A DNA stretch of 64,000 nucleotides. Source: Chloroflexota bacterium. GTDB taxonomy: Bacteria > Chloroflexota > Dehalococcoidia > Lucifugimonadales > Australimonadaceae. A model generated the notes under the pieces. That model did no database searches, had not been told where the DNA came from, and saw only the letters and a list, made by a program, of their open reading frames with translations. Position 1 is the stretch's first letter; every line of letters begins with the position of its first letter. The position numbers and the translations under genes are program-made. The stretch lies in the NCBI GenBank assembly GCA_028874795.1, contig JAPPHT010000030.1, forward strand, positions 1-64,000, read 5' to 3'. Below, piece after piece: positions 41,182 through 52,853 of the stretch.

Positions 41182-42513
41182 ATGACAACGACCAATCTGG
41201 ATTTGGCCCGTGAGTGCGCTGAGCTGGTGAACGTCGAGCAGGGGCTCGTCAGCAGGAAGATCTTCTCCGACCCGGACATCTACCAGTTGGAACTGGAGCA
41301 GATCTTCGCCCGGTGCTGGCTCTATCTCGGCCACGAGTCCCAGCTTCCCAACCCCGGCGACTACATCAACGTCTTCATGGGCGAGGAGCCTGTGCTCGTC
41401 GTCCGCAACCGCCAGGGGAAGATCAACGCCTTCATCAACAGCTGCCGCCACCGCGGCAACCGCGTCTGCCGAGCGGACGCCGGCAACACAGCCTCCTTCC
41501 TGTGCACGTACCACGGATGGACATACGACCTGGACGGCAAACTCATCGGCGTGCCGGGGCATCAGGAGCTGTACCACGGCGAACTGAATCGAGGCCAGTG
41601 GGGCCTGCCCCCTGTTGCCCAGGTTGCCAGCTACGGAGGGCTGATCTTCGGCACGTTCGACCCGGACGCGCCGTCGCTGGACGAGTACCTCGGCGACATG
41701 CGCTGGGGCCTCGACCTGCTGGTGGGCCAGGGTGACATGGTGGCCGTGCCCGGCGTCATACGCTGGCAGATGAACGTCAACTGGAAGTTCGCGGCCGACA
41801 ACGCGATCGGCGACAACTATCACGGCATCACCCACATGTCCTCGCAGATCGCGGGACACTCCAGTGCGGAGGGGACCCGCAAAGGAGCTGGCCTGCACAA
41901 GGCGGGCGAACGGACCGGCTTCTCCGTAGTCACGGAGTACGGCCACGGCTTCAATGCCGACTACATCAACGAGAACACCTTCAATTGGAACTCCCCGGGC
42001 GCCTACTGGCGAAAGGACCCGGAGGTCCAGAGATTCATGGGGCCCCTCAGGAACCGGGTCAACAGGACGAACCAGAACGTGTTCCCGAACCTGTTCGTCA
42101 ACTCAGGCTCACGGGAGTTGATGCTCCGCAATCCGCTGGGACCTACGCAGATGGAGATATGGAAGACCATGTTGATCGACCGCAACGGGCCCGTGGACTC
42201 ACGCCGCCTGATGATGCGGGGAGCAAATCGGCACTTCGGTCCTGCCGGCATGTTCGAGCAGGACGATGGCGAGAACTGGGACCAGAGCACCTACGGCACG
42301 CGCGGTGCCGTCTCCCGGCAGTACGACCTCAACTACAGCATGGCCATCGGTCACGGCGAGCTGATCGTCGATGAGCTGGGTCCGCCACGCATTGAGTCCC
42401 TCTCGAATGAACACTGCCAACTGTGGCATTACCGGTGCTGGGCCGAGTACATGGCTGCGCCCAGTTGGAAGTATCTGGTGGTCAATCACTCCAAGCCCGT
42501 TGGCGTACTCTAG
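41182..42513 (+). CDS. Rieske ring-hydroxylating dioxygenase alpha subunit (array copy 1)
   Basis: 'CRHRGNRVCRADAGNTASFLCTYHGW'; 'GDNYHGITH'; 'FGPAGMFEQDDGENWDQ'. Confidence 0.95.
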   Translation: MTTTNLDLARECAELVNVEQGLVSRKIFSDPDIYQLELEQIFARCWLYLGHESQLPNPGDYINVFMGEEPVLVVRNRQGKINAFINSCRHRGNRVCRADAGNTASFLCTYHGWTYDLDGKLIGVPGHQELYHGELNRGQWGLPPVAQVASYGGLIFGTFDPDAPSLDEYLGDMRWGLDLLVGQGDMVAVPGVIRWQMNVNWKFAADNAIGDNYHGITHMSSQIAGHSSAEGTRKGAGLHKAGERTGFSVVTEYGHGFNADYINENTFNWNSPGAYWRKDPEVQRFMGPLRNRVNRTNQNVFPNLFVNSGSRELMLRNPLGPTQMEIWKTMLIDRNGPVDSRRLMMRGANRHFGPAGMFEQDDGENWDQSTYGTRGAVSRQYDLNYSMAIGHGELIVDELGPPRIESLSNEHCQLWHYRCWAEYMAAPSWKYLVVNHSKPVGVL

Positions 42514-42539
42514 GCGGAGAGGGGGTAGGGAAACCTCGC

Positions 42540-43886
42540 ATGACTACGATAGAGGAAGGCCGGGCGATAGCGAGACTGGTCGACTATGAGCAGGGACTAG
42601 TCAGCCGGAGGATCTTCTCCGACCCGGACATCTACCAACTGGAGCTCGAGCAGATATTCGCCCGCTGCTGGCTCTATCTCGGCCACGAGTCCCAGCTCCC
42701 CAACCGCGGCGACTACATCAACGTCTTCATGGGCGAGGAGCCCGTCCTCGTCGTCCGCAACCGACAGGGCAAGATCAACGCCTTCATCAACAGTTGCCGC
42801 CACCGCGGCAACCGCGTCTGCAGGGCGGACGCCGGCAACACAGCCTCCTTCCTGTGCACGTACCACGGATGGACATACGACCTGGACGGGAAGCTGATCG
42901 GCGTACCGGGGCACCAGGAGCTCTACCACGGGGAACTGAACCGTGAACAGTGGGGTCTGCCCCAGGTTGCCCAGGTTGCCAGCTACAAGGGGCTGATCTT
43001 CGGGACGTTCGACCCGGACGCACCTTCGCTGGACGAGTACCTGGGCAATGCGCGCTGGGCCCTGGACCTGCTGTTGGAGCAGGGCGACATGGTGGCAGTG
43101 CCGGGCGTCGCCCGGTGGCGGATGAATGCCAACTGGAAGTTCGCGACGGACAACGCAGGCGACATGTACCACGGCAACATCACGCACCGCTCCGCCAGGA
43201 TAGCGGGTCACCGGGCAGCGGACGGCGAACGAACGCCGGAACTGTTCGAGAACCGCAGGCGGTCGATCATCTCCGGCAAGGTTGGCCGCCCCGGGATCGT
43301 CATGCTCGCGGAGTACGGACATCACGCCCTCGGCGTGTACGACGACGACGATCCGAACGGGCCGACCAACTACTGGAAACGTGACCCTGAGACTGCCAAG
43401 CGGTTGGGCCCGCTGCGTGTACGCCTGTCACGGAGCAACCAGAACATCTTCCCCAACCTCTGGGTAAACACCGGGGCCCGGGAGTTGACCCTGCGCCAGC
43501 CCCTCAGCCCCACGCAGTTGGAGATATGGAAGACGACACTGGTGGACCGTAACGCTCCGCCCGAAGCCCGGCGCGAGTTCAGGTTCTTCTCGAACCGGCA
43601 TTTCGGGCCCGCCGGCATGTTCGAGATGGACGACGGCGAGAACTGGGACCAGAGCACCTACGGCACCCGTGGCGACGTCGTGCGGCAGTACGACCTGAAC
43701 TATACGATGGGCGCAGGCCATGGCGAGGTCATCGAAGACGAGTTGGGGCCGCCCCGTATCGAGCAGCTGTTCCACGAGTACGCACAGCGCTGGCTCTATG
43801 GGAACTGGGCGGACTACATCGCCGCGCCCGATTGGCGCCATATCCGCGAGCACCACAAACGTCCAAAGGCAGGAATGGTCCTCTGA
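42540..43886 (+). CDS. Rieske ring-hydroxylating dioxygenase alpha subunit (array copy 2)
   Basis: same Rieske motif; 'GDMYHGNITH'; 'FGPAGMFEMDDGENWDQ'. Confidence 0.95.
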   Translation: MTTIEEGRAIARLVDYEQGLVSRRIFSDPDIYQLELEQIFARCWLYLGHESQLPNRGDYINVFMGEEPVLVVRNRQGKINAFINSCRHRGNRVCRADAGNTASFLCTYHGWTYDLDGKLIGVPGHQELYHGELNREQWGLPQVAQVASYKGLIFGTFDPDAPSLDEYLGNARWALDLLLEQGDMVAVPGVARWRMNANWKFATDNAGDMYHGNITHRSARIAGHRAADGERTPELFENRRRSIISGKVGRPGIVMLAEYGHHALGVYDDDDPNGPTNYWKRDPETAKRLGPLRVRLSRSNQNIFPNLWVNTGARELTLRQPLSPTQLEIWKTTLVDRNAPPEARREFRFFSNRHFGPAGMFEMDDGENWDQSTYGTRGDVVRQYDLNYTMGAGHGEVIEDELGPPRIEQLFHEYAQRWLYGNWADYIAAPDWRHIREHHKRPKAGMVL

Positions 43887-51516: not shown

Positions 51517-51539
51517 CGCCTGACTCCTTTGGATTCGGA

Positions 51540-52853
51540 CTAGAGCACCATCCCGGGCTGTGGCTTCGAATGATGTTCCCGGAGGTGCCGCCACGAAGGC
51601 GCCGCCATGAACTCGGCCCAGCAACGGTACATCCACAACTGGGCATGCTCGTTGTAGGCAACCTCTACGCGCGGTGGGCCGAGCTCATCATCGACGATGA
51701 GTCCATACCCGATCCCCATCGTGTAGTTGAGGTCATTTCGCCGCGCAACGATGCCCCGCGTGCCGTCCGTGCTCTGGTCCCAGTTCTCACCATCGTCCAT
51801 CTCGAACATACCGGCGGGCCCGAAGTGGCGGTTGGAGTTGTTGAGCTGAGCACGCACCGCCTCCGGCGAAGCGTTCCTGTCCACCAGCGTCGTCTTCCAT
51901 ATCTCCATCTTCGCCGGGCCAAGCGGGTTCCGTAGCATCAGCTCGCGTGAGCCCGAATTCACGAACAGGTTGGGAAACACGTTCTCATTGGCGCGGGCAA
52001 CCCTGTTGCGCAGCGGCCCCATTCGCTTCTGGACCTCCGGGTCCTTTCGCCAGTAGGCTGCGGGAGCGTCCGGGTCGAAGTCGTCGCGGAGGTAGTCCGC
52101 GTTGAACCCGTGGCCGTACTCGGTCACCACCGTGAATCCGGGCCTGCCCAGTCCCTGCAAGGCCGCGCGGCGTCCCTCCGGTGTGTTGATGTCGATGCCC
52201 CGCCCCGCGCCATGGCCCGCAAGCTTCGCTGACCGGTGCGTGATGTTGCCGTGGTACATATCGCCGATGGCATTGTCCGCGGCGAACTTCCAGTTCGCGT
52301 CCATCTGCCAGCGGACCACGCCCGGCACCGCGATCATGTCGCCCTGCTCCAACAGCAGGTCCAGGCCCCAGCGCATGTCGCCGAGATACTCGTCGAGCGA
52401 CGGCGCATCCGGGTCGAACACCCCGAAGATCAGCCCCTTGTAGCTATCGACCTGGGCGACCGGAGGCAGGCCCGCCTGGCTGTCGTCGGGCGCACCCATC
52501 TGTTTCCCGTCCAGATCGTACGTCCGGGCATGGTTCGTGCAAAGGAAGGAAGTCGTGTTGCCGGCATCTGCCCGGCAGACGAGGCTGCCGCAGTGCGGGC
52601 AACTGTTGACGAAAGCGTTGACCTTGCCCTGGCGGTTGCGAACGACGAATACGGGCTCTTCGCCCATGAATGCGCTGACGTAGTCACCCGGGTTGGGGAG
52701 TTGGGACTCGTGGGCCAGGTAGAGCCAGCAGCGCGCGAAGACCTGCTCCAGTTCCAACCGGTAGATCTCCGGGTCGGCGTAGATGCGGCGGCTGACCAGT
52801 CCCCTCTCGTGGTCGACGAGGGCGCTCAGTTCCTCCGGCGAGATGCTAGTCAT
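51540..52853 (-). CDS. Divergent Rieske ring-hydroxylating dioxygenase alpha subunit (array copy 6)
   Basis: 'CPHCGSLVCRADAGNTTSFLCTNHARTYD', shortened Rieske domain; 'GDMYHGNITH'. Confidence 0.93.
   Translation of the reverse strand: MTSISPEELSALVDHERGLVSRRIYADPEIYRLELEQVFARCWLYLAHESQLPNPGDYVSAFMGEEPVFVVRNRQGKVNAFVNSCPHCGSLVCRADAGNTTSFLCTNHARTYDLDGKQMGAPDDSQAGLPPVAQVDSYKGLIFGVFDPDAPSLDEYLGDMRWGLDLLLEQGDMIAVPGVVRWQMDANWKFAADNAIGDMYHGNITHRSAKLAGHGAGRGIDINTPEGRRAALQGLGRPGFTVVTEYGHGFNADYLRDDFDPDAPAAYWRKDPEVQKRMGPLRNRVARANENVFPNLFVNSGSRELMLRNPLGPAKMEIWKTTLVDRNASPEAVRAQLNNSNRHFGPAGMFEMDDGENWDQSTDGTRGIVARRNDLNYTMGIGYGLIVDDELGPPRVEVAYNEHAQLWMYRCWAEFMAAPSWRHLREHHSKPQPGMVL

What the first reader, a model, noticed from the sequence alone, without database searches (positions are those of the whole stretch)
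41182..52853. Six Rieske alpha-subunit paralogues served by a single beta subunit
Seen: six full-length BphA/NDO-type alpha-subunit genes within 11.7 kb (four on +, two on -), each with Rieske ligands, a D-x2-H iron motif and the downstream 'FGPxGxFExDDGENWDQ' Asp motif. Only one beta-subunit gene (49606-50169) is present, with its start codon abutting the stop of alpha copy 5. Established: oxygenases of this class are usually alpha3beta3 with one beta per alpha. Inference: either one beta pairs combinatorially with several alphas, or the orphan alphas act as alpha3 enzymes. This would be a substrate-diversification array rather than a single pathway.
Basis: partly seen in the sequence, partly recalled or inferred. 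Interest (0 to 1): 0.85.

Follow-up and report, generated by a model that had tools for sequence, protein, structure and literature searches.

The report
Six oxygenases sharing one small subunit
This bacterium carries six side-by-side versions of one ring-oxidising enzyme whose electron-handling halves are kept nearly identical by gene conversion while their substrate-binding halves diverge, all apparently served by a single small partner subunit; the same many-to-one layout recurs in related genomes.

Summary
Six intact HcaE/BphA-like Rieske alpha genes with intact metal-ligand motifs lie at 41182-52853 with one beta gene (49606-50169). The genome has 11 other betas, but each sits beside an alpha of another subfamily.

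In a1-a5 the Rieske half is 94-96% identical, also enriched at silent sites, while the catalytic half is 58-71%. a3 and a5, on opposite strands, share a 363-nt identical tract. Across genomes, catalytic domains form orthologue groups but Rieske domains cluster by contig (AU p 1e-3 to 1e-51). This is concerted evolution of the electron-transfer/assembly module with stable diversification of the substrate module.

Many alphas per matching beta recurs: 35 full-length alphas to 1 in Dehalococcoidia MAG Dino_bin38, about 21 to 1 in a single-contig genome, and alpha(2-4)-beta operons in five genomes.

Best explanation: one beta serves interchangeable alphas as alpha3beta3 enzymes of different specificity (about 0.6). 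Beta-independent alpha3 action for some copies, notably a6, is not excluded. SAR202 alpha excess was already published, so this is a new variant of a known kind. No experiment has been done.

The parts
41182..42513 (+). alpha copy a1 (Rieske oxygenase large subunit; H-x3-H variant)
   Evidence: catalytic orthologues P0020/P0021
42540..43886 (+). alpha copy a2
   Evidence: orthologue P0025
43908..45239 (+). alpha copy a3; shares a 363-nt identical Rieske tract with a5
   Evidence: orthologue P0017 94%
46692..48032 (+). alpha copy a4
   Evidence: orthologues P0018 and P0024
50170..51516 (-). alpha copy a5, directly upstream of the beta gene
   Evidence: orthologues P0019 and P0023
51540..52853 (-). 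alpha copy a6; non-homogenised Rieske domain with a ~10-residue deletion, also present (and longer) in orthologue P0032
   Evidence: model mean pLDDT 80, Rieske blocks mostly 85-97, 72 near the deletion; closest fold 8k0a
49606..50169 (-). single beta subunit gene, start codon abutting the a5 stop codon
   Evidence: orthologues P0137 97% and P0138 86%
48769..49599 (-). two-domain ABM-family protein immediately after beta; a second copy 64% identical lies at 25503-26276
48106..48693 (+). X2, conserved 195-aa protein after a4; beta-rich fold, not an RO beta subunit
45364..46596 (+). MetE-like (Meth_synt_2) protein between a3 and a4; paralogue at 54343-55545 (66%)
40181..41137 (+). LigB-family extradiol ring-cleavage dioxygenase directly upstream of a1
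37832..38581 (+). SDR dehydrogenase, candidate cis-diol dehydrogenase
36874..37842 (+). second LigB-family dioxygenase (32% identical to the first)

Best explanation
The locus is an 'interchangeable head' array of alpha3beta3-type ring-hydroxylating oxygenases. An ancestral alpha-beta pair (a5-beta) expanded by alpha duplication without copying beta. Gene conversion then keeps the Rieske half nearly identical among copies in a genome, which preserves the surfaces that meet the shared beta, the shared electron donor and the neighbouring alpha. The catalytic halves, above all the entrance-loop segment, diverged into stable lineages of different substrate specificity. The single beta is used in common, so that one set of accessory parts serves several oxygenases feeding a shared dihydrodiol dehydrogenase / LigB meta-cleavage route. 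Shown: gene content, mosaic structure, gene conversion, orthologue groups, recurrence of many alphas per beta. Inferred: that beta physically assembles with the orphan alphas, that substrates differ, and the downstream route.
For: (1) The alphas are nearest to alpha3beta3 enzymes in sequence (a5) and fold (a6): HcaE 8k0a, BphA, TDO, far ahead of alpha3 enzymes. (2) Rieske 94-96% aa identity among a1-a5 against 58-71% in the catalytic half; silent-site identity is also higher in the Rieske half, Fisher p down to 5e-15. (3) a3/a5: 88 concordant polymorphic sites in a row against 8.7 in permutations (p 0.0005); a3+a5 group in the Rieske tree (94/99) and are rejected in the catalytic tree, p 0.03. 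(4) Orthologue groups a4/P0018/P0024, a5/P0019/P0023 and a6/P0032/P0022 hold for catalytic domains but are rejected on Rieske domains (AU p 1e-3, 1e-4, 6e-4); the three alphas reported from one 76,165-nt contig group by Rieske and are rejected by catalytic domain, p 3e-51. (5) Single-copy pairs show no such amino-acid contrast: 70/70, 92/94, 85/81%. (6) Recurrence with one matching beta: Dino_bin38 35 full-length alphas, G018 about 21 (one contig), G237 alpha4-beta, G219 alpha3-beta, G234/G235/G238 alpha2-beta. (7) In five genomes the upstream alphas and a second, mostly beta-adjacent alpha form separate old catalytic orthologue groups (support 0.991 and 0.996) beside one beta, so the 2:1 layout is stable. 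(8) A 2025 review places a beta contact and the neighbour-alpha contact in the Rieske domain (PMC12445004).
Against: No assembly or activity data exist. Four orphan alphas lie in a convergent run away from beta, so equal supply of beta is not assured. Surplus alphas could be beta-independent, as proposed for SAR202 (PMC6946804). The alpha-beta interface itself was not modelled. Residues reported to dock a Rieske ferredoxin (CumDO alpha-K117, beta-R65) are Ala/Thr and Gly here, so the electron donor is unknown. a6 lacks part of the segment after the cluster motif.
Confidence: 0.6

Rival explanations
1. The orphan alphas (all but a5) work without beta as alpha3 trimers; beta belongs to a5 alone.
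For: Alpha far outnumbers beta in SAR202 genomes and was read this way in PMC6946804; true alpha3 enzymes exist; a6 lost a Rieske-domain segment; Dino_bin38 arrays of three alphas have no beta within 12-13 kb.
Against: The alphas belong to the beta-using HcaE/BphA branch by sequence and fold, whereas most SAR202 alphas in that paper were annotated as phthalate 4,5-dioxygenase type. a5 and orphan a3 share an identical Rieske tract by conversion, so they face the same constraints on that module. Alpha-alpha-beta operons with one beta are kept across five genomes.
Confidence: 0.25
2. Several copies are inactive duplicates on the way to decay.
For: a6 has an altered HGW motif and a deletion; some alphas in other genomes carry internal stops.
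Against: All six reading frames are intact with metal ligands. Each catalytic type has a 90-96% identical orthologue elsewhere. The a6 deletion occurs in orthologue P0032, whose catalytic half is 96% identical to a6, and the model keeps the Rieske fold.
Confidence: 0.06
3. The Rieske similarity reflects only stronger purifying selection on that domain, with no gene conversion.
For: The Rieske domain is functionally constrained; in older arrays (G100, G018) the silent-site contrast is small (0.45 v 0.36; 0.44 v 0.41); one orthologue pair (G094/G081) also shows higher silent identity in the Rieske half (0.71 v 0.46).
Against: In the window silent sites are also homogenised (0.73 v 0.39), with a 363-nt identical tract between inverted copies. 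Rieske domains group by contig against the catalytic orthology with significant AU tests.
Confidence: 0.05
4. Assembly or binning artefact: missing betas, collapsed repeats or a misplaced contig.
For: The window comes from a 90-contig assembly; repeats of about 360 nt can be blended in short-read assemblies; five same-genus genomes lack the array.
Against: 97% complete, 1.2% contamination; tetranucleotide profile matches other contigs of the genome, r about 0.95; orthologues of the copies are reported from other contigs, one of them 3.5 Mb long; many-to-one ratios also hold in a single-contig genome.
Confidence: 0.04

Closest known systems
HcaE-HcaF 3-phenylpropionate/cinnamate dioxygenase (8k0a) and BphA1A2 biphenyl dioxygenase
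   Same: Closest solved alpha by sequence and fold; BphA-type beta is closest for the beta; alpha-beta gene order for a5; neighbouring SDR and LigB genes suggest a similar dihydrodiol to meta-cleavage route.
   Different: Six alphas per beta; mosaic homogenised Rieske halves; far below the HcaE (334 of 830 bits) and HcaF (158 of 230) equivalog cut-offs.
SAR202 (Chloroflexota) ring-hydroxylating dioxygenase paralogue expansions (Saw et al. 2020, PMC6946804; Colatriano et al. 2018, PMC6123686)
   Same: Large excess of alphas (1-62) over betas (1-3) in group VII genomes; substrate diversification proposed.
   Different: Reported as genome counts over mixed families, with phthalate 4,5-dioxygenase the commonest annotation, and read as monomeric enzymes. 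In the sections read there is no mention of arrays of beta-type alphas, conserved alpha-alpha-beta operons or Rieske-domain gene conversion.
Sphingobium yanoikuyae B1 multiple terminal oxygenases with one ferredoxin/reductase (PMC1847435)
   Same: Many oxygenases share one accessory component.
   Different: There the shared part is the electron-donor chain; here it would be the structural beta subunit.
NdmA/NdmB alpha3alpha'3 oxygenase (listed in PMC12445004)
   Same: Precedent for two different alphas in one assembly.
   Different: No beta subunit; two rather than six alphas; no homogenised Rieske module known to me.

Membership tests
alpha3beta3 Rieske non-heme iron oxygenase, HcaE/BphA branch | Rieske ligands C-x-H and C-x2-H | tested here: met
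   all six copies
alpha3beta3 Rieske non-heme iron oxygenase, HcaE/BphA branch | 2-His-1-Asp iron site and bridging Asp (D-x2-H-x4-5-H plus Asp motif) | tested here: met
   all six keep D, both His and the DDG(E/D)N motif; a1 and a3 have H-x3-H, a spacing seen in other beta-linked alphas
alpha3beta3 Rieske non-heme iron oxygenase, HcaE/BphA branch | nearest solved relatives are alpha3beta3 enzymes | tested here: met
   8k0a, 5aeu, 1uli, 3en1 for alpha; 1uli_B, 3en1_B for beta
alpha3beta3 Rieske non-heme iron oxygenase, HcaE/BphA branch | one cognate beta gene per alpha gene | tested here: not met
   six alphas, one beta; other betas of the genome adjoin other alphas
alpha3beta3 Rieske non-heme iron oxygenase, HcaE/BphA branch | alpha3beta3 quaternary structure | not testable with these tools
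   needs protein or complex modelling
HcaE/HcaF equivalogs (NF042946, NF042947) | score above curated cut-off | tested here: not met
   334 of 830 and 158 of 230 bits
ROs reduced by a Rieske-type ferredoxin (CumDO mode) | alpha Lys117 and beta Arg65 equivalents | tested here: not met
   alpha position Ala (a1-a5) or Thr (a6), mapped through the 5aeu alignment with the CumDO numbering offset inferred; beta position Gly
alpha3 or alpha3alpha3 (phthalate dioxygenase-type) oxygenases | no beta subunit; extended catalytic region for trimer stacking | tested here: inconclusive
   lengths (437-448 aa) and similarity fit the beta-using branch; the stacking region was not examined
Concerted evolution by gene conversion | paralogues in one genome more alike than orthologues, with identical tracts and silent-site support | tested here: met

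The most novel reading that the evidence does not exclude
The homogenised Rieske halves let different alphas mix in one trimer. Because electrons pass from the Rieske cluster of one alpha to the iron of its neighbour, any copy could reduce any other, and a pool of six alphas on one beta scaffold would form combinatorial oxygenases.
Probability: 0.15. Interest if true: 0.85.

Novelty: new variant of a known kind. Interest (0 to 1): 0.64.

Why it matters
Rieske oxygenases start aerobic breakdown of many aromatic compounds, and the role of their beta subunit is still debated. A natural system with many alpha heads for one beta, and a Rieske module kept uniform by gene conversion, offers a direct test of what beta does and suggests a modular way to diversify these enzymes: vary the catalytic half and hold the electron-transfer/assembly half constant. 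It also gives another reading of the alpha excess in SAR202-type genomes, until now taken to mean monomeric enzymes.

Tried and rejected
X2 after a4 is the size of a beta and sits in a beta position, so I tested it as a cryptic beta: no Pfam hit, confident beta-rich model without beta-subunit matches among the listed hits, best weak match 25-phosphosteroid lyase; rejected. Missing betas beyond the window: none on the contig. a6 as a pseudogene: deletion shared by an orthologue, so unlikely. The C6 trio of this genome (three alphas, one beta) shows high Rieske identity (96%) but no silent-site contrast (0.59 v 0.69), so it does not show the window's conversion pattern. The array is absent from five same-genus genomes, so close relatives could not be studied by that route. 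No paper in the held library described gene conversion or concerted evolution in ring-hydroxylating oxygenases; most subscription journals are not held.
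Full report
OBSERVATION. All six alphas are full length (437-448 aa), free of internal stops, and keep the Rieske ligands, the bridging Asp, both iron His and the downstream Asp motif. a1-a5 have purine-rich RBS-like leaders read directly. The beta start codon follows the a5 stop codon without a gap. The layout is two convergent runs: + ligB, a1, a2, a3, MetE-like, a4, X2; and - a6, a5, beta, ABM. 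Genome-wide there are 86 Rieske-domain hits and 12 betas. The other 11 betas each lie next to an alpha of a different subfamily.

WHAT THE ALPHAS ARE. By sequence (with a5) and by the a6 fold model they belong to the beta-using HcaE/BphA/TDO branch. The beta is closest to BphA- and TDO-type betas among solved structures and passes the NCBIfam subfamily model NF007479 (194 bits, cut-off 145). They are not HcaE itself (far below the equivalog cut-off).

MOSAIC STRUCTURE. Among a1-a5 the segment of residues about 20-180 is 94-96% identical in protein and 88-94% in DNA; the rest is 58-71% and 64-72%. The least conserved block (28-47% identity, alignment columns 221-260) follows the iron His pair and corresponds to the flexible active-site entrance loop described at residues 220-240 of the S. 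yanoikuyae enzyme (correspondence by alignment, my inference). Silent positions show the same contrast: four-fold site identity 0.73 v 0.39 for a1-a5, and Fisher tests on synonymous codon identity significant at 0.05 for 14 of 15 pairs. a3 and a5, about 7 kb apart on opposite strands, are identical over 363 nt of the Rieske segment, with 45 of 46 four-fold sites equal over the whole Rieske segment, although their catalytic halves are saturated at silent sites. A permutation test gives p 0.0005, the resolution limit. Trees of the two halves disagree.

CONCERTED EVOLUTION ACROSS GENOMES. Protein searches found 90-96% identical catalytic orthologues of every copy. Three alphas and one beta are reported from contigs of the same length, 76,165 nt, which I take to be one contig. 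Their catalytic halves are orthologous to a4, a5 and a6, but their Rieske halves are 91-93% identical to each other and share marker residues. AU tests reject the orthologue groups on the Rieske alignment (p 0.001, 0.0001, 0.0006) and reject the within-contig group on the catalytic alignment (p 3e-51). The copies are therefore older than the split of these genomes, and their Rieske halves have been homogenised since. Control pairs of alphas not in arrays show equal amino-acid conservation of the two halves (70/70, 92/94, 85/81%), though one of them (G094/G081) has a silent-site difference, so silent-site contrast in a single pair is not proof by itself.

MANY ALPHAS, ONE BETA ELSEWHERE. Dino_bin38, labelled Dehalococcoidia in its record title, has 35 full-length alphas of this type plus fragments and one beta of the matching type; three more betas are of a distant type. 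That assembly is shallow (contig names say about 2x coverage), so stops and missing genes there need care. G018 is a single contig with about 21 main-clade alphas and one matching beta next to one of them; a second beta adjoins a different alpha clade. In family f41 of the same order there is a series: alpha-beta (G192, G195), alpha2-beta (G234, G235, G238), alpha3-beta (G219), alpha4-beta (G237). The upstream alphas and a second, mostly beta-adjacent set form two catalytic orthologue groups across five genomes (support 0.991 and 0.996; in G219 the second-group member is the middle alpha), while these groups dissolve in the Rieske tree. A 2:1 layout that survives that long is hard to explain as decay. 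In contrast the Eremiobacterota relatives of the window alphas (about 61% identical) have one alpha followed by one beta.

MECHANISM. A recent review states that the Rieske domain carries an insertion contacting the neighbouring alpha, an extension contacting beta, and that electrons pass between subunits (PMC12445004). A study of cumene dioxygenase places ferredoxin docking at the alpha-beta boundary (PMC9361823). The half of the protein that is homogenised here is therefore the half that meets the shared parts. I infer that conversion plus selection keeps these surfaces uniform so that one beta and one donor serve all copies, and that the catalytic halves are free to specialise. The two Rieske-ferredoxin docking residues of that study are not conserved in the window proteins, so the donor may be of another type; the genome has only eight Fer2 hits and none on this contig. 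a6 is the exception: its Rieske half is not homogenised and lacks part of the segment after the second cluster motif, a state seen also in orthologue P0032; it is the first candidate for a beta-independent or partner-shifted copy.

WHAT IS KNOWN. Saw et al. 2020 reported 1-62 alphas and 1-3 betas in SAR202 group VII genomes and proposed monomeric function. The alpha excess is thus known. I did not find in the held literature the domain-wise concerted evolution or the conserved alpha-alpha-beta operons, but most subscription journals are not held.

LIMITS. No protein data; interfaces not modelled; nucleotide sequences of the cross-genome orthologues not available, so their silent sites were not tested; the window assembly has 90 contigs and repeats of about 360 nt could be blended, although the pattern in separately reported proteins argues against this being the whole story.

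Noticed in passing
window 60291-62318 (-) and C81:70-81 kb (locus L131): A large serine recombinase (Resolvase, Recombinase, Zn ribbon) and, 10-20 kb further, a conjugation module (TraG/VirB4-like ATPase, TrwB-like coupling protein, TrbL/VirB6, PrgI) on the same contig: an integrative conjugative element near the array could explain its absence from same-genus genomes.
   Followed up: partly
window 48106-48693 (+): X2: conserved 195-aa family without Pfam match (16 homologues, 44-94%), confident beta-rich model with only a weak match to 25-phosphosteroid lyase.
   Followed up: partly
window 45364-46596 and 54343-55545 (+): Two MetE-like catalytic-domain-only proteins, 66% identical, inside and beside the array; far below methionine synthase equivalog cut-offs.
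   Followed up: no
window 25503-26276 (+) and 48769-49599 (-): Two-domain ABM-family paralogues 64% identical; in G237 a NIPSNAP/ABM-like reading frame (judged by eye) also follows the beta gene.
   Followed up: no
G018 and G100 alpha genes: Several alphas carry one or two in-frame stops within the matched stretch; not checked whether they are end-of-gene stops, pseudogenes or sequencing errors.
   Followed up: no
window 57074-60727 (+): 1217-aa protein with fibronectin/cadherin-like and RCC1-like repeats, judged by eye from the translation.
   Followed up: no
window 28443-30860 (-): HpaB-type 4-hydroxyphenylacetate 3-hydroxylase with about 280 extra N-terminal residues in the open frame; the start codon may be further downstream.
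   Followed up: no
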